From Rhodocollybia butyracea (Eukaryota > Basidiomycota > Agaricomycetes > Agaricales > Omphalotaceae), in contig JADNRY010000041.1 in NCBI GenBank assembly GCA_015501585.1, positions 186,001 through 250,000 of the forward strand: DNA of 64,000 nt, in the 5' to 3' direction. The translations under genes were made by a program, and so were the position numbers. The notes below the pieces were generated by a model, which was not told where the DNA came from, did not search any database, and saw only the letters and a list, made by a program, of their open reading frames with translations. Position 1 is the first letter of the stretch. Every line of letters begins with the position of its first letter. Shown here piece by piece: positions 32,794 through 38,543 of the stretch.

Positions 32794-33009
32794 TGGGTGG
32801 ATACCTATGCTGTGGGCAAATAGCGAATAGGATAGCAAATAATTAGTCATACATCCATAGTAGGAATGTTATTCCCACCACAGACGCTCAGCGCGTCCAG
32901 CCGCGCGTGGGTGGATACCTATGCTGTGGGCAAATAGCGAATAGGATAGCAAATAATTAGTCATACATCCATAGTAGGAATGTTATTCCCACCACAGACG
33001 CTCAGCGCG
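32794..33009. repeat. Two direct copies of a 102-bp unit
   Basis: Copies at 32794-32895 and 32908-33009 look identical over 102 bases and are separated by 12 bases, a period of 114. Both start TGGGTGGATACC and end CTCAGCGCG, and each is preceded by GCGCG. The identity suggests a recent tandem duplication. No coding function is seen. Confidence 0.9.
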
Positions 33010-33152
33010 GTACCCAGGATCAATCCACGCACCTCCCAGAAAATAATAAAGTGTCCAATAAATCCTTTCTGTCCGCAACCATTATGAGAAAGGTAGCGGG
33101 AGCTATAAGCTTCCACAGTAACACGGAAGATGGGTATCTGTAGACTGTGACC

Positions 33153-33236
33153 AATCTGTGGTACACGGTGATGTTGGCACAAAAAAGAGTCTTGTTTTTT
33201 GTGCCAACATCACATCCATGTACCACCAAGATTCAT
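33153..33236. repeat. Long hairpin / inverted repeat
   Basis: Arms at 33159-33186 and 33195-33225 are near-perfect reverse complements (core gatgttggcacaaaaaa), with a 3-base difference in one arm and an 8-base loop. Weaker pairing extends to about 33153 and 33236. It could be a small foldback element or a head-to-head junction of two element ends. Confidence 0.75.
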
Positions 33237-33816
33237 GCATGGCTCTTTATAAAATGAGACCATACGAGTTTACACTACATACCTACTACCATAGTTGAGC
33301 AAGGGGTTGAAATCCTAGCTTGTTCTCTTGTAATTACTTACAGAACTTGATAAGTATGGCAATATTGATATGTAAGATGATTCACAGCCTGGATACTTCA
33401 ATAGTAGGGACACCTGGACACTCAAAAGGCTCAAGATTTAAGATGCCTAAAGAGAGGGTTGATTTAAACAGCAGCCTTCTAAAACAGGAGATCCGAGCCT
33501 TTTGGAGAGGTATACTAGTAGTACTTAGACTTTCTAATGTATCCAGTGTACTTAGTAGATGAACTACGTATACAATGCAGAGTATAACGACTTATTTATT
33601 GTTCTTCGTCTCTTAACGTTGAGTGGGCGGCTTCATACTAACATCTTATCTTATCTATTGACTGATTTCGTCACGACAATTTCCGTTTTCGGGATCGCTA
33701 TCCAGATGAGTCACCAAGATTTCCTGAAAGTTACGGCAAAAAAAATTCAAAAAAGGAAAATCTTGCGATTTTCTTGGTGGTATCATCTCGGCAATGCCGA
33801 TGACATCCAAACGCTA

Positions 33817-33821
33817 TATGA
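33817..33821. repeat. Target site duplication, left copy (TATGA)
   Basis: TATGA directly before the left LTR; the same five bases follow the right LTR at 37213-37217. This fixes both element ends. Confidence 0.9.
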
Positions 33822-34074
33822 TGTAACGCCTCCGCCTCTCCATAATCACCACTGACCGTATCCGGCGATACGGTCATCCTAGACGCCGCCGATAGACCAA
33901 ATGGTCTATCTTATCATTCTATTTATTATTAATTATATAATAAATCCGTTACTATAAGTATCATATGATTACTTAAGAGTCTAGTTAGTCTTTTACACCG
34001 TCGTACACACAATAGTATCCTATTTGTCGTGTTCACCAGTGTTCTTAAGGACTTTGCCCATAGGGCGCATTATA
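33822..34074 (+). repeat. Left LTR (253 bp)
   Basis: Same length as the right LTR with five differences, all transitions at CpG sites. It contains strong hairpins at 33853-33876, 33891-33910 and 33921-33945. Confidence 0.95.
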
Positions 34075-34242
34075 CTTTTTTGAACATCAAAAAATACTAT
34101 TGTGTGAATAACACAAAGCTATTAGTTTAACAAGCTAAAAACAGTTATACTACCAAGTATAACAATCACTATTCCAACTCGCTTCAACAAGCTATACAAA
34201 TCCGCTCCATTTTTCCTTATCGCTATATCATTTGCTGTCCCC

Positions 34243-36619
34243 ATGACCTCTCGAAATCAATCAGAGAAGTCATATCAGAGTGTGCGCGATCGCGCACATT
34301 CCATTCGTGGTGACGTGTCACCACACTCAATCTATTCAGTCGCATCAGCGACTCATTCCGTACGTGCGTCTGAAGGACGGCACTACAGGCAGGACAAGAG
34401 TCCACCTAATGAACAGTCTATGACTATTCGTAAGAAACGGCGAACCCGAGAGGGTTTAAGTGAGATTTCTTCTGCGCTACGAGATGTAGCGGCATCACTC
34501 GACAAGAGTACGCAAGTACTCAATCGTATTCTCAATATAACTGAGAAATGGGATGCATCTAGCATCCGATCTAATGAAGAAAGATCTTCTTCATTGAGAA
34601 ACAGCAATAGAATCACCCACACCGAGACGGCCTGCCGTCACACCGCCGGTATTGCACAATGCAGCACCATCTGTTCCTACCGAGGCAAACAACTTGGTAC
34701 GCCAATGGCGTGAGACTGTGCCCAAGGCACCATCAGTCCAACAATCACTGTTGGATGAACAGTATTCACAAGGGATGACCAAGTCACCCCGTCATGTTCC
34801 TGTATTCCGACAGGAATACACACCAGTGTCAGTAACTATACCGACACCCATCTACACATCCCGCATGAGACAGAGTCCCAATGTGGAGGCAGCGTCTCTG
34901 ACACTGCGAGGTCCCAGGCCATTACCGGTGACCAAATCTTGCTCACCACAAAGCGCGGTGAACATTAAAAGTGAACCGAAGTTACCTCGTAACTTCAATC
35001 AGGTAGTAGCGATACCACCACAGGAAAGTACAATGTACTTCCCTACTGCAAGGGCGCCAATGGTACCCAATATTATTACACCTCCAGTAGTTGTACCAAA
35101 CACTACTGGAAATCATTCCAGTATGGGACCGCAACACGGTACCCTCCCGGTAGTTCCTACTACCATATCCATTGCCCCGGCGACACAAAGTGTTGCCCCT
35201 CCGGTAGTACACACTACCGTAAGACTGCCCAAATTGCCGCCCAGCAATGCGCCAGAGCCAAGTTCAATGCCAGTACCAACGGTATTGGCCGAGTTGCAAC
35301 CACAGCCGCTTCCATTGGGAGTAGCTAAAGATTGGATGAGTCGCATAGCGATTCAACGCCAACATAACACCAGTCTCCGAGATTTCGGATTTGCGCCATC
35401 TGGGCTTCCCGACCAAATGGTGGGATATAATGTCGACGGAATACCCGTTGATAAATTGACTACTCCCAGAGAAATCTGGGATCGATTTTACATTCCACCC
35501 ACTGAGTCCTTTCCAGGACCAAGCAATAATGCCGGAGCGAAAGCACCTAGCAAAAAATCCCGTGAAGGGGGGAGGAAGCACAAGAGTGCTAAATCCAAAG
35601 GCCGCAAACGCAGGCCATGGTCGGATGAATCATCTGACTCTAGTGATACCGAGTCACATGGTCGGATGAATCATCTGACTCTAGTGATACCGAGTCAAAT
35701 ACTGACTCTTCGTCTGATGCCTCTTGGCTAGACAAATTTGCTACCCGTAAGGGTAAAATTACTCCTAATGAGCGCCGTAAAATACTGCGTTCACTTGCAT
35801 CTAAGATGCGAGAAACAACAGGTGACGACGAACGTCGTTCCCGATGGAAACACAAGGTACACAAAGTGTACCGTAAACAAATTCGAGATAAGGTAGGGAA
35901 TCCTATCCCTCCCATTGAGAGCCGTAAAGCTCTTAAAGTTCCATCTCCAGAGGTCTATGACGGATCTCCGGATGTCGATGTCTTCGAGCGGTGGCTAATG
36001 TCACTTCTCCAATGGATGGTAGTCAACCGCATGTGCGGTGACGATTACGATGCTACATGGACTGCCGTGCTTGGCATGTTTCTAAAGGGCAAAGCCCTTG
36101 GCTGGTATAACGACGAAGTCGCTGGTATACACCGCACTGTCCTTAAGTGGACATTTGAAGGCGCCATCATTGGTGTCTTTGATCGTTGCATCCAAGCAAC
36201 GACCATTCATCAAGCTGCACGGCAGTTTGACCTTATTGAGTATTCACCCGATACGGGTGTGAGGGATTATTATTCCTCACTTACACGATGGGCATCACGG
36301 ATGCTCCAAACACCGGATGATGCAACAATGCGGAAACGGTTCATTGAGGGATTACCCTTCAAAATTATCAGGCAACTCACGAACGAGGGGATCGTTCCGG
36401 AGTATGCCAAATTAGTTAGAAGTGATGGTCAGAGCCGTCACACGCATTGAGGACCACACGGCCCTCACTAAATATTATGTCTCTTCTAGGAATAGAGACA
36501 ATGAACTTGAATCATCAGAACACCCCAATGAGTCGGACACCGAGAACATTAAAAATGTTCTTGAGCCAATCGAGGAGGACACCTCCTTAAGTATCGGAAA
36601 GGATAAACCTTCCGAATGA
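34243..36619 (+). pseudogene. Degraded gag-like polyprotein of LTR element
   Basis: Coding sequence runs in three successive open segments that change frame: 34243 to about 34610 (start MTSRNQSEKSYQSVRDRAHS), then to about 35656, then 35657-36450, with a last shift near 36422 and an end at 36619. The second shift is explained by a 41-base tandem duplication (35616-35656 and 35657-35697). The N-terminal part is Ser/Pro-rich and then basic (KKSREGGRKHKSAKSKGRKR). The segment 35930-36410 resembles a retrotransposon gag core: EVYDGSPDVDVFERWLMSLL, MFLKGKALGWYNDEV, and SSLTRWASRMLQTPDD. No CCHC zinc knuckle is seen. With three frame breaks this copy cannot make the full protein unless frames are recoded. 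Confidence 0.8.
35616..35697. repeat. 41-bp tandem duplication inside gag
   Basis: Two exact 41-base copies in tandem, starting CATGGTCGGATGAATCATCT. As 41 is not a multiple of three, the duplication shifts the gag frame. Confidence 0.95.
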
Positions 36620-36950
36620 TTTATTGGTTTATTCCGACGCCCAGGTAATATGCCTTACCTGGGCATAACTACATATCCTCAGCCCAGATTCTCACTGAGA
36701 ATCCTCATTAAGCAATACTCGGAAACTTCTGAGTCTGCGCGTTGAACATTTGGACATTTCCGAATCAAATCATGCTCTAGTGGTACGCCCCACTATTGTT
36801 TGATTTGGACAAGTCCGAAAATCTGATGCGCCGCATCACTTAATCCCGTACTTGATACGGGATCATTCTATGTTAAACCAAATTAAAAATGGTTTGGATG
36901 GTGATGATGTCATTACCATTTTCGATTCACATCCCTGATGTTAATCTGGT

Positions 36951-36959
36951 GGGGGAGGG
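36951..36959 (+). other. Polypurine tract of LTR element
   Basis: GGGGGAGGG lies immediately before the right LTR, the position where plus-strand DNA synthesis is primed in LTR elements. Confidence 0.75.
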
Positions 36960-37212
36960 TGTAACGCCTCCGCCTCTCCATAATCACCACTGACCGTATC
37001 CGGCGATACGGTCATCCTAGACGCCGCCGATAGACCAAACGGTCTATCTTATCATTCTATTTATTATTAATTATATAATAAATCCGTTACTATAAGTATC
37101 GTACGATTACTTAAGAGTCTAGTTAGTCTTTTACACCGTCGTACACACAATAGTATCCTATTTGTCGTGTTCACCGGTGTTCTTAAGGACTTTGCCCATA
37201 GGGCGCGTTATA
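36960..37212 (+). repeat. Right LTR (253 bp)
   Basis: Matches the left LTR at 248 of 253 positions. It keeps CG where the left copy has TG or CA at all five differing sites. Confidence 0.95.
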
Positions 37213-37217
37213 TATGA
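37213..37217. repeat. Target site duplication, right copy (TATGA)
   Basis: TATGA following the right LTR, matching 33817-33821. Confidence 0.9.
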
Positions 37218-37290
37218 ACACCGGGATCATCTTGCGAGAGCTTCGACAACAGCACAGAGTAATTTTCATTGAGATTGAGAGTGAGGAATT

Positions 37291-37335
37291 CCTTTCTTTC
37301 TTTCTTTCTCTTTTCTCCTCTTTCCTTTTTTGGTT
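37291..37335. repeat. Pyrimidine-rich microsatellite
   Basis: A (CTTT)n-like run followed by mixed C/T sequence just downstream of the LTR element. Simple-sequence DNA with no coding sense. Confidence 0.7.
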
Positions 37336-37546
37336 TTTATTATTTTTGGAATTCTGGCCCACAACATCGCTATCCAGCCTTAACATTTGCCACATGACTG
37401 GCTTGAACTCACATGGATAGGATATTGGAGCTTAGAGAAAGCGTGACCTTAACCCAGGGTCGGCGCTCTAAACGACTAATCCATAGCGGCATTTGAATAT
37501 TTTCTTTCATGTATCTGCATAGAGAGAAGAAATATTGCCCTGTCTA

Positions 37547-38543
37547 TGCTGCTGAATAGTGGACAAAAATCGTTTGCGCGAATTTTACATAATTTGCAAT
37601 ATTTTTGTAGTTTTCTGTGCATGGACCCTCATTCCCGCGCGCACGCCCAAGTTTCAAGGGCGAAATGTACTATGTTTGGTAAGGCCTAGTTTTGACTCAG
37701 TCATACAGCTCGAATTTTGTAGTTTTCTGCGCGCGCACCCTCATTTCCGCACGCGCGCGCAAGTTTTTGTCATCAGATCTACTATATCTGGTAAGGCCCA
37801 GTCTCGACTCAGTCATATGACTGCCTAATTCAGACATGTTTCTCTCGACTTTACCTTCTATTGAATTTGGGCCCTTGCTGATAGTAATGATTTATGAAGC
37901 AGGCAAGGGGGCCAGTATTTATTTACTATTTTGTACATGCATGAGTCTAAGCTATGCCTACTGTCACTGGCACATGCATAAAGAGTTGATAAAGAGAGTT
38001 GTTACACATACTAATGATTTTTAGAATGAATTAAGTGGACAGCAGTTGGGCAGCCTTGCAAGTTGCAAGCTTGCCAATCTGCCACCAATGACACATAAGT
38101 ATGGTACTACTCAGTAAAATACATGGTGTTTCCTCCAATATAGCATCCTCTTTCTGTTCTCCATATCTACTTTGGGAAATATGTAACTAATCAGCCATGA
38201 CTGATCTCGTCACGGCACTCCTTTTGGCCGGTCAAAGCAGTTCGACCTACACTGTGGCTGTGCTCGAACCAACAATCGGGTTTGGGGAGGTTTGGGGTGC
38301 TCACCTAATTTGCACCTAATTATCTGCCAATATAATGTTAAGTATAAGTACATTGAGGGAAGCATGTCCAAGTTAGGCAGCTGTATAACCGAGTCAAGAT
38401 TAGGCCTTACCAAACATAGTAGATCTCGCGCTCGAAAACTTGGGCATGCGTGCGGAAATGAGGGTGCGCGCGCAGAAAACTACAAAAATAGTGCAAATTA
38501 TGTAAAATTCGCGCAAACGATTTTTGTCCACTATTCAGCAGCA
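37547..38543. mobile_element. 997-bp TIR element with TA target duplication
   Basis: Terminal inverted repeats of about 165 bases (37547 to about 37710 and about 38380 to 38543) start TGCTGCTGAATAGTGGACAA and match closely. A TA flanks each end (37545-37546 and 38544-38545), as for Tc1/mariner-type insertions. The left arm contains a second, diverged copy of part of the repeat in direct orientation, with a 112-base period (37603 and 37715). No transposase is visible, so this is a MITE-like or internally deleted element. Open frames inside are shadows of the repeat. Confidence 0.85.

What the first reader, a model, noticed from the sequence alone, without database searches (positions are those of the whole stretch)
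33822..37212. LTR element saturated with short near-perfect hairpins over its full length
Reading the element, I find inverted repeats with short loops one after another through LTRs, gag-like coding region and 3' part. Verified arms with strict Watson-Crick pairing include 33853-33862/33867-33876 (10 bp), 33891-33898/33903-33910 (8), 34307-34314/34317-34324 (8), 34573-34581/34587-34595 (9), 34978-34985/34989-34996 (8), 35202-35208/35213-35219 (7), 35856-35862/35866-35872 (7), 36184-36189/36196-36201 (6), 36543-36550/36554-36561 (8), 36639-36648/36655-36664 (10), 36687-36693/36697-36703 (7), 36843-36850/36856-36863 (8). I count about 26 with arms of 6 or more and loops of 3-6. Chance for arm 6 and four loop sizes is about 4/4096 per position, so about 3 in 3.4 kb. 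Neighbouring host genes do not show this. Hairpins inside coding sequence must share the bases with codons. Possible causes are selection for RNA structure (packaging, Gag binding, protection from silencing) or reverse-transcriptase template switching that turns quasi-palindromes into perfect ones. I know of no description of such an element.
Basis: seen in the sequence. Interest (0 to 1): 0.9.

Follow-up and report, generated by a model that had tools for sequence, protein, structure and literature searches.

The report
Jumping genes packed with tiny hairpins
A family of fungal jumping genes, from one end to the other and through its protein-coding parts, spells out dozens of short sequences that can fold back on themselves, far beyond chance, and comparison of relatives suggests natural selection keeps them, perhaps to shield the element's single-stranded copies inside the cell.

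Summary
All 12 quoted hairpins are exact. The 3,391-bp element holds 47 non-overlapping perfect hairpins (arm 6 or more, loop 2-10) against 5.8±2.2 in shuffles; 57 kb of other DNA in the window has no excess (95 vs 103). It is a gag-only Ty3-type LTR element; 133 places at 86-100% gag identity were listed in its genome. Autonomous relatives with RT and integrase are equally saturated, conserved codons included (56 vs 8.9 in codon shuffles). Copia, a LINE and other Ty3 elements show at most a mild excess. Folding excess (MFED) is 32-42%; the highest whole-genome virus value in a paper seen in passages is 23.4%. Between relatives at 76% identity, four-fold sites in arms change less than elsewhere (0.31-0.37 vs 0.55-0.57), double changes are mostly compensatory, and many hairpins turn over. 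One-arm copying, expected from template switching, was not seen. Best reading: selection for being folded, as in 'genome-scale ordered RNA structure' of RNA viruses, but in an LTR retrotransposon and stronger. Which strand is selected, and why, is open: G·U is not favoured over A·C.

The parts
33822..37212 (+). gag-only Ty3-type LTR element (fam1), 3391 bp, hairpin-saturated
   Evidence: 47 hairpins vs 5.8±2.2 in shuffles; LTR/TSD check
33817..33821 (.). 5-bp direct repeat TATGA, left (likely target-site duplication)
   Evidence: read directly
37213..37217 (.). 5-bp direct repeat TATGA, right
   Evidence: read directly
33822..34074 (+). 5' LTR, 253 bp; 4 hairpins
36960..37212 (+). 3' LTR, 253 bp, 5 mismatches to the 5' LTR; 4 hairpins
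34075..34242 (+). 5' untranslated stretch; 3 hairpins; no tRNA-like primer site recognised by eye
34243..36619 (+). gag coding region; broken in this copy, open for about 810-820 codons in several other copies; Retrotrans_gag match below cut-off (E 0.067)
35619..35697 (+). tandem duplication in gag (38-base unit at 35619 and again at 35660)
36948..36959 (+). purine-rich tract just before the 3' LTR
   Evidence: read directly
33853..33876 (.). hairpin 10 bp, loop 4
33891..33910 (.). hairpin 9 bp, loop 2
33921..33945 (.). hairpin 9 bp, loop 7
33955..33975 (.). hairpin 6 bp, loop 9
34076..34094 (.). hairpin 8 bp, loop 3
34100..34116 (.). hairpin 6 bp, loop 5
34144..34163 (.). hairpin 8 bp, loop 4
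34281..34298 (.). hairpin 8 bp, loop 2
34307..34324 (.). hairpin 8 bp, loop 2
34338..34353 (.). hairpin 6 bp, loop 4
34475..34491 (.). hairpin 6 bp, loop 5
34506..34521 (.). hairpin 6 bp, loop 4
34529..34547 (.). hairpin 6 bp, loop 7
34551..34567 (.). hairpin 6 bp, loop 5
34573..34595 (.). hairpin 9 bp, loop 5
34626..34639 (.). hairpin 6 bp, loop 2
34737..34755 (.). hairpin 7 bp, loop 5
34801..34820 (.). hairpin 8 bp, loop 4
34978..34996 (.). hairpin 8 bp, loop 3
35026..35040 (.). hairpin 6 bp, loop 3
35083..35110 (.). hairpin 9 bp, loop 10
35149..35164 (.). hairpin 6 bp, loop 4
35202..35219 (.). hairpin 7 bp, loop 4
35464..35481 (.). hairpin 7 bp, loop 4
35635..35656 (.). hairpin 6 bp, loop 10, inside the tandem duplication; gapped in all 20 other copies aligned
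35692..35708 (.). hairpin 6 bp, loop 5
35825..35838 (.). hairpin 6 bp, loop 2
35856..35872 (.). hairpin 7 bp, loop 3; the same hairpin stands at the homologous codons of fam5 (L061) and, with one pair broken, of fam2 (L060)
36026..36039 (.). hairpin 6 bp, loop 2
36085..36099 (.). hairpin 6 bp, loop 3
36183..36202 (.). hairpin 7 bp, loop 6
36245..36259 (.). hairpin 6 bp, loop 3; fam5 has a hairpin of different sequence at the homologous codons
36381..36397 (.). hairpin 6 bp, loop 5
36478..36500 (.). hairpin 7 bp, loop 9
36543..36561 (.). hairpin 8 bp, loop 3
36573..36587 (.). hairpin 6 bp, loop 3
36594..36615 (.). hairpin 6 bp, loop 10
36639..36664 (.). hairpin 10 bp, loop 6
36687..36703 (.). 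hairpin 7 bp, loop 3
36778..36795 (.). hairpin 6 bp, loop 6
36824..36838 (.). hairpin 6 bp, loop 3
36843..36863 (.). hairpin 8 bp, loop 5
36875..36895 (.). hairpin 6 bp, loop 9
36991..37014 (.). hairpin 10 bp, loop 4 (LTR copy)
37029..37048 (.). hairpin 8 bp, loop 4 (LTR copy)
37059..37083 (.). hairpin 9 bp, loop 7 (LTR copy)
37093..37113 (.). hairpin 6 bp, loop 9 (LTR copy)

Best explanation
One clade of Ty3-type LTR retrotransposons in this fungal genome is under whole-element selection to be locally folded when single-stranded. Its sequence is a chain of short perfect hairpins (arms mostly 6-9 bp, loops mostly 3-7 nt) running through LTRs, untranslated parts, gag, RT and integrase. In coding parts they are written with synonymous codons. 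What is kept is foldedness rather than particular stems: a little under half of the hairpins stay in place between relatives at 24% divergence, the rest shift or are replaced. Most likely function (inferred): to shield single-stranded forms of the element, the genomic RNA and/or the minus-strand cDNA, from hybridisation with complementary RNA, in a host that carries Argonaute and RNA-dependent RNA polymerase genes. Shown here: the excess, its limits to the clade, the constraint on arms, compensation, loop and closing-pair preferences. Inferred: that hairpins form in the cell, which strand matters, and the shielding role.
For: Excess at all arm lengths from 6 to 10 pooled over 5 families (6: 122 vs 23; 7: 70 vs 6.4; 8: 45 vs 1.4; 9: 23 vs 0.3; 10: 5 vs 0.03), confined to loops up to about 10 nt with the peak at 3-4, as for physical hairpins. 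Survives codon shuffling: fam2 gag 45 vs 7.1, RT 17 vs 2.7, RH-IN 27 vs 5.4, fam3 pol 56 vs 8.9±2.9. Strong form clade-limited: cousin L082 (45-46% aa in integrase) 7 vs 5.0; 12 Copia loci 0.4-3.3x at arm 6, with 0 or 1 hairpin of arm 8; other Ty3-type loci L074, L076, L077, L078 0.4-1.9x; LINE-type L075 8 vs 2.6. Four-fold sites of identical amino acids, fam2 vs fam3: arms 20/64 and 33/89 changed (hairpins taken from fam2, from fam3), unpaired 135/244 and 121/214, loops 13/20 and 14/25 (arm vs unpaired p=0.0007 and 0.0024). Double changes in arms 20 vs 8.9 expected, 14 of 20 restoring a pair; reciprocal 23 vs 12.1, 14 restoring. Hairpin centres coincide within 1 nt for 18 of 40 (1.6±1.4 when rotated). 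Codon phase pooled 62/45/72 against 8.1/9.6/6.6 in codon shuffles: the phase with least synonymous freedom is under-used (p=3e-5). Loops A 0.446 vs 0.32 outside hairpins; closing C-G 72 vs G-C 24 of 184 (p=2e-6). MFED 32-42% vs about 0 for two host stretches. Argonaute and RdRP genes in the host.
Against: G·T is not preferred over A·C when a pair breaks (fam2/fam3 17 vs 20; one direction of five family pairs 38 vs 43; all 12 directions counted 88 vs 105; P=0.0002 for a 2:1 preference on 38 vs 43), and at stem ends G·T is rarer than composition predicts (27 vs 36.5) while A·C is commoner (66 vs 51.7). Structure of the plus-strand RNA alone should tolerate G·U. The absolute folding gain is about equal on both strands, although MFED is higher on plus (32-42%) than on minus (25-33%). 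Lower four-fold divergence in arms and the codon-phase pattern would also follow from a neutral pair-restoring process combined with protein constraint. The phase pattern is uneven: fam1 gag alone gives 5/11/11. Only five families from one genome were compared, two of them (fam3, fam4) 87% identical, and each comes from one copy that carries post-insertion mutations. No small-RNA, expression or probing data. Other Ty3 elements of this genome, L082 (12%), L074 and L076 (9-10%), show modest MFED without an excess of long perfect hairpins, and 10 of 12 Copia loci and the LINE have 1.5-3.3 times the expected arm-6 hairpins, so a weaker, wider cause is possible.
Confidence: 0.58

Rival explanations
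1. Mutation, not selection: during reverse transcription the growing strand folds back and copies its own arm, so imperfect palindromes become perfect (quasi-palindrome correction), and protein constraint limits this in coding parts.
For: No G·U preference; non-coding parts are somewhat denser (15.8-17.9 per kb vs 12.6 in gag) with longer mean arms (7.2-8.5 vs 6.7); protein constraint plus conversion would also lower four-fold divergence in arms and favour the same codon phases; DNA of the window outside the element lacks the trait, while some other retroelements have a mild form.
Against: For hairpins with 3 or more arm differences between fam2 and fam3 the differences never lie on one arm only (0 of 17, 2.1 expected; reciprocal 0 of 21, 2.1 expected); with 2 or more it is 4 of 26 (6.2 expected) and 0 of 28 (5.3). 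Neighbouring differences are not commoner in hairpins (0.154 and 0.213 inside, 0.240 and 0.223 outside). In 38 recent fam1 copies 1 of 193 clustered changes looked like a fold-back copy, and its bases are CpG transitions; many of the 193 are indels or alignment shifts around one duplication, so the test is weaker than the number suggests. Arms end sharply: pairing beyond the first mismatch is 0.30-0.37 for three positions and then at chance. Loops are A-rich and closed by C-G.
Confidence: 0.2
2. Dispersed packaging or Gag-binding signals: each hairpin is a weak binding site for Gag, as proposed for some RNA viruses (recalled).
For: Fam2 Gag has a zinc-knuckle-like C-x2-C-x4-H-x6-C stretch (seen by eye in the translation, motif recalled; Pfam finds no family in that frame); gag-only and autonomous families share the trait, and gag is the protein they share.
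Against: No shared loop sequence (the commonest triloop AAA is 11 of 83; GNRA-type 6 of 63 tetraloops); spacing is as irregular as random placement in 5 of 5 families (fam3 slightly more even, CV 0.56 vs 0.67±0.08); over half of the stem positions differ between fam2 and fam3.
Confidence: 0.1
3. DNA-level role: short inverted repeats act in double-stranded DNA, for example as cruciforms or by affecting chromatin or recombination.
For: G·T and A·C breaks are about equally frequent, as expected if both strands count alike.
Against: Loops are A-rich on the plus strand only (A 0.446, T 0.234 against 0.32 and 0.23 outside), a strand asymmetry that double-stranded DNA would not need; arms of 6-9 bp are short for cruciform extrusion (general knowledge).
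Confidence: 0.08
4. Composition or method artefact: the excess comes from base composition, codon usage, repeats or the search method.
For: None of weight; three hairpins between 35083 and 35219 share a GTAGT/ACTAC core.
Against: Dinucleotide and codon shuffles and other DNA of the window; five families.
Confidence: 0.01

Closest known systems
[quoted passage not shown] PMC7642675: abstract and passages seen; PMC3950689: passages seen)
   Same: Whole-genome excess of folding energy over dinucleotide shuffles, built from many consecutive short stem-loops through coding regions; stems often displaced or replaced between relatives; paired sites vary less.
   Different: Here it is an LTR retrotransposon of a fungus. 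Mean MFED 32-42% against 7.5-10.7% (HCV), about 15% (SARS-CoV-2) and 23.4% (highest genome mean in that paper; single regions there exceed 50%); stems are short and perfect; no sign of G·U tolerance on the plus strand.
Palindrome-rich cis-region in maize Sirevirus LTRs (Bousios 2016, as described in passages of PMC10760457; the 2016 paper itself is not held)
   Same: LTR retrotransposon with clustered palindromes and a link between predicted structure and small RNAs.
   Different: There described for the cis-regulatory part of the LTR of Copia elements; here spread over the whole element including pol, in a Ty3 clade.
Yeast Ty1 and Ty3 genomic RNA structure (SHAPE; PMC11381356, start of abstract and two passages seen)
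   Same: LTR retrotransposon RNA with structured regions through the coding part; stable, highly structured regions make up to 30% of Ty1 and Ty3 RNA.
   Different: I saw no report there of a saturating excess of short perfect hairpins, but I read only two passages and did not compute MFED for Ty1 or Ty3.
Ty3/Gypsy (Metaviridae) LTR retrotransposons
   Same: LTRs, 5-bp duplication and purine-rich tract in the window element; RT, RNase H, H2C2 and rve integrase domains in Ty3 order in the autonomous relatives.
   Different: The window's element has no pol; no primer site for a tRNA was recognised.

Membership tests
Ty3/Gypsy LTR retrotransposon (window element as a non-autonomous, gag-only member) | two direct LTRs flanked by a short target duplication | tested here: met
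   253-bp LTRs with 5 mismatches, TATGA on both sides
Ty3/Gypsy LTR retrotransposon (window element as a non-autonomous, gag-only member) | gag related to that of an autonomous Ty3 element | tested here: met
   61-64% aa identity over about 203 aa with 17 listed places, among them L060, whose next frames hold RT, RNase H and integrase; the Pfam gag match of the window copy is below cut-off
Ty3/Gypsy LTR retrotransposon (window element as a non-autonomous, gag-only member) | RT before integrase in the pol of autonomous relatives | tested here: met
   L060 and L079: RVT_1, RT_RNaseH, Integrase_H2C2, rve in that order
Ty3/Gypsy LTR retrotransposon (window element as a non-autonomous, gag-only member) | pol in the element itself | tested here: not met
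   gag stop at 36617-36619, then 340 bp and the 3' LTR; hence filed only as a non-autonomous derivative
Ty3/Gypsy LTR retrotransposon (window element as a non-autonomous, gag-only member) | tRNA primer-binding site after the 5' LTR | tested here: inconclusive
   read by eye only; a hairpin stands at the place (34076-34094)
GORS (by definition a property, here asked of a retroelement) | mean MFED above the 3% threshold used in PMC3950689, across the genome | tested here: met
   39% (fam1), 42, 41.5, 38 and 32% (fam2-fam5) with 350-base fragments and 15 shuffles each; fam2-fam5 are partial elements
GORS (by definition a property, here asked of a retroelement) | structure poorly conserved in exact pairing while overall folding is kept | tested here: met
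   8 of 39 gap-free fam2 hairpins keep all pairs in fam3, 18 of 40 centres coincide within 1 nt, both families saturated
GORS (by definition a property, here asked of a retroelement) | acts as structure of the plus-strand RNA | tested here: inconclusive
   MFED higher on plus than on minus, loops A-rich on plus, but no G·U preference
GORS (by definition a property, here asked of a retroelement) | positive-strand RNA virus genome | tested here: not met
   an LTR retrotransposon integrated in a eukaryotic genome; so it works like GORS rather than being a GORS virus

The most novel reading that the evidence does not exclude
A clade of retrotransposons encodes protein and a self-folding 'armour' in the same bases: hairpins that must form in both the plus-strand RNA and the minus-strand cDNA (hence no wobble on either strand), making target and small guide RNA from either strand self-folded and so blunting RNA silencing. 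In fam1, fam2, fam3 and fam5, 30-37% of 22-mers on both strands fold at -3 kcal/mol or better against 14-20% in shuffles. Controls are mixed: host 18-19% (shuffles 18-19%), Copia L072 15-22%, but cousin L082 24-27% and the minus strand of Copia L068 32% (shuffles 25%).
Probability: 0.2. Interest if true: 0.93.

Novelty: new variant of a known kind. Interest (0 to 1): 0.8.

Why it matters
Pervasive folding has been described for some RNA viruses, with its cause still debated. Here it appears, stronger than any genome mean I saw for a virus, in a DNA-integrated retroelement. Several related families lie beside little-affected elements in one host, so the usual confounders (host, base composition, replication site) are partly controlled. 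If selection is the cause, the case makes the question 'what is pervasive folding for?' testable against RNA silencing in a fungus; if mutation is the cause, it would reveal a reverse transcriptase that writes hairpins into its own genome. It also warns that synonymous sites of such elements are not neutral, which affects dating and family trees.

Tried and rejected
Template switching: sought as one-arm clustering and clustered replacements, not found (in one search, 11 of the 49 loci L010-L058 were dropped because they lie in the same places as others, and matches under 300 bp were dropped). Regular spacing: none. Tetraloop signature of RNA (GNRA, UNCG): 6 and 0 of 63. Wobble test for plus-strand RNA: negative. 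tRNA-gene targeting like yeast Ty3 (recalled): no tRNA gene at 33000-38200 or in 38 fam1 loci (ARAGORN here uses the bacterial code and can miss intron-bearing tRNAs). Rfam: no match in 33000-38200. Relatives in IMG/VR viral contigs with the fam3 pol as a single-protein query, which finds close relatives only: none. Pair changes among the young fam1 copies were uninformative: single changes in arms give 117 G·T, 115 A·C and 81 other mismatches, and of 22 double changes that keep a pair many sit in L052 and L058, whose alignment is partly unreliable.


Full report
What is there. The window belongs to a 95.6-Mb eukaryotic genome of 1,381 contigs. Many STE3 pheromone-receptor matches (31) and near-identical contig pairs among Argonaute matches suggest a fungus, probably a basidiomycete assembled with two haplotypes; this is inference. 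The element at 33822-37212 has two 253-bp LTRs (5 mismatches), a 5-bp duplication TATGA and a purine-rich tract before the 3' LTR. Between them lies a gag region (34243-36619), broken in this copy; a tandem duplication lies at 35619-35697. Several other copies have an open frame of 810-820 codons. There is no pol. A protein search with 214 aa of gag lists 133 places at 86-100% identity (this copy included, some partial) and 17 at 61-64% before the list is cut; 150 of 385 candidates were scored, so these are lower bounds, and allelic copies may be counted twice.

The observation. All 12 quoted hairpins are exact. Counted mechanically without overlap, the element has 37 (arm 6 or more, loop 3-6; 3.2±1.6 in 30 dinucleotide shuffles) or 47 (loop 2-10; 5.8±2.2). 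At arm 8 it is 17 against 0.33. Every part of the element shows it. Nineteen 3-kb tiles of the window outside the element total 95 against 103 expected. Twenty copies fetched over their length hold 30-52, flanks of about 300 bp included.

Not only gag, not only this family. Relatives fetched from the genome are called fam1 (window), fam2 (L059, L060), fam3 (L079-L081), fam4 (L083) and fam5 (L061); fam3 and fam4 are 87% identical over 1.2 kb, the others further apart. L060 carries a 1,326-aa frame that begins with gag (Pfam finds no family in it; a protease-like DSG stretch is seen by eye) followed by frames with RVT_1, RNase H, H2C2 and rve domains. Against shuffles that keep protein and codon usage, hairpins of arm 6 or more are 45 vs 7.1 in the first frame of fam2, 17 vs 2.7 in RT, 27 vs 5.4 in RH-IN, 28 vs 4.8 in the fam5 frame and 56 vs 8.9±2.9 in the 1,133-codon frame of fam3. 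Controls in the same genome: 12 Copia loci, several evidently of one family (L062-L066 1.9-3.3x, L067-L071 1.5-2.6x, L072 and L073 0.6x and 0.4x; none with more than one arm-8 hairpin); Ty3-type loci L074, L076, L077 and L078 (6 vs 3.2, 2 vs 3.8, 4 vs 2.9, 1 vs 2.5) and a LINE-type frame L075 (8 vs 2.6) (these type names are my reading of the translations); and a cousin with 45-46% identical integrase (L082; 7 vs 5.0). So 10 of 12 Copia loci and the LINE have a mild excess; the strong form was seen only in one Ty3 clade.

Anatomy of the hairpins. Pooled over the five families (20.7 kb), the excess sits at loops of 3 (59 vs 3.5), 4 (49 vs 3.8), 5 (39 vs 3.2), 6 (29 vs 3.6) and 7 nt (23 vs 3.3) and has faded beyond about 10 nt. 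Enrichment rises with arm length to 9 bp (23 vs 0.27) and then numbers fall fast (5, 1, 1 for 10, 11, 12 bp). Pairing beyond the first mismatch is slightly raised for three positions (0.33, 0.37, 0.30) and then at chance. Spacing is as irregular as random placement. Loops of 3-5 nt hold 44.6% A against 32% outside; G is 13.7% against 21%; T is unchanged. The closing pair is C-G 72 times and G-C 24 times of 184 (p=2e-6). Folding excess by the virologists' measure (MFED, 350-base fragments) is 39, 42, 41.5, 38 and 32% for fam1-fam5 on the plus strand, 25-33% on the minus strand of fam1-fam3, -1 to 6% for five of the Copia frames, 1-12% for four other Ty3 frames, 4% for the LINE and about 0 for two host stretches. 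In PMC7642675 (abstract and passages seen) HCV has 7.5-10.7%, SARS-CoV-2 about 15%, and the highest genome mean recorded is 23.4%, with a local peak above 50%; methods differ in detail (their shuffling program and 15-base steps; mine 175-base steps and 15 shuffles).

Evolution. Fam2 and fam3 share 76% of bases over 2.9 kb of pol. At four-fold sites of identical amino acids, sites inside fam2 arms differ in 20 of 64, outside hairpins in 135 of 244, in loops in 13 of 20; with hairpins taken from fam3, 33 of 89, 121 of 214 and 14 of 25. Of arm pairs changed on both sides (20; 8.9 expected if independent), 14 are again Watson-Crick. Eight of 39 gap-free fam2 hairpins keep all pairs in fam3 and 20 have at most one broken; 18 of 40 centres coincide within one base (1.6±1.4 by rotation; the single rotation that reached 19 is presumably close to no shift). 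Elsewhere a hairpin of different sequence stands at nearly the same codons, for example around gag codons YSPxxGVRD in fam1 and fam5. Pooled over six frames, hairpins under-use the codon phase in which only third-position pairs are free (62/45/72 observed, 8.1/9.6/6.6 expected; chi-square p=3e-5); fam1 gag alone (5/11/11) does not show it.

Selection or mutation. A neutral process that restores pairing, combined with protein constraint, could also lower four-fold divergence in arms and produce the phase pattern, so those two tests do not decide. The following bear on it. If one arm is rewritten from the other, differences should lie on one arm: 0 of 17 hairpins with three or more differences (2.1 expected), reciprocal 0 of 21 (2.1 expected); with two or more, 4 of 26 (6.2) and 0 of 28 (5.3) (the reciprocals are not independent). 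Differences are not more clustered in hairpins. In 38 recent copies, 193 clusters of changes, many of them indels or alignment shifts around one duplication, included one that looks like a fold-back copy, and it consists of CpG transitions. Arms do not grow outward without limit, even in non-coding parts. This favours selection but rests on few families.

Which molecule. If only plus-strand RNA mattered, G·U should replace Watson-Crick pairs more freely than A·C. It does not: 17 vs 20 (fam2/fam3), 38 vs 43 over one direction of five family pairs that I picked, 88 vs 105 over all 12 directions (overlapping); 38 vs 43 rejects a 2:1 preference at P=0.0002. At stem ends G·T is below and A·C above expectation; pooled with one-mismatch stems the split is 47 vs 101 (p=0.02). 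The loop asymmetry says that one strand, or RNA on one and DNA on the other, matters. The life cycle of an LTR element offers plus RNA and minus cDNA. This is a conjecture.

Mechanism. I take shielding as the most likely role: folded single strands are poor partners for complementary RNA. A passage of PMC7642675 states that structured virus genomes are inaccessible to probes. The host has Argonaute and RdRP genes. About a third of 22-mers on both strands fold at -3 kcal/mol or better, about twice the shuffles; the controls are lower except the minus strand of Copia L068. None of this shows that silencing is evaded; in maize, predicted structure in elements correlates with more small RNAs (PMC10760457, passages), the opposite direction.

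Novelty. Ten paper searches in an open-licence library found no description of such an element; subscription journals are mostly not covered. The kind of property is known from RNA viruses; its presence and strength in a retrotransposon clade appear new.

Noticed in passing
window 35619-35697: Tandem duplication (38-base unit, 41-base step) in the gag region of the window copy; the hairpin 35635-35656 in it is gapped in all 20 other copies aligned.
   Followed up: partly
L082 (G000:C821), L074, L076; Copia L062-L071; L075: Other Ty3 elements of the genome show a modest folding excess (MFED 9-12%) without an excess of long perfect hairpins; ten Copia loci and a LINE-type frame have 1.5-3.3 times the expected arm-6 hairpins.
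   Followed up: partly
window 34076-34094: An 8-bp hairpin stands where the primer-binding site should follow the 5' LTR, and no tRNA-like primer site was recognised by eye; self-priming is possible.
   Followed up: no
window 37290-37340: CTTT/pyrimidine-rich simple repeat just downstream of the element.
   Followed up: no
G000 contigs C143/C506, C102/C1212, C924/C1271, C1130/C428: Near-identical Argonaute matches on contig pairs suggest that both haplotypes of a dikaryon are in the assembly, so copy counts may include allelic copies.
   Followed up: no
fam1 copies L039-L058: Single changes in arms among recent copies give G·T and A·C mismatches in equal number (117 and 115); by eye many are transitions at CpG, as expected from decay of methylated cytosines on both strands.
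   Followed up: partly
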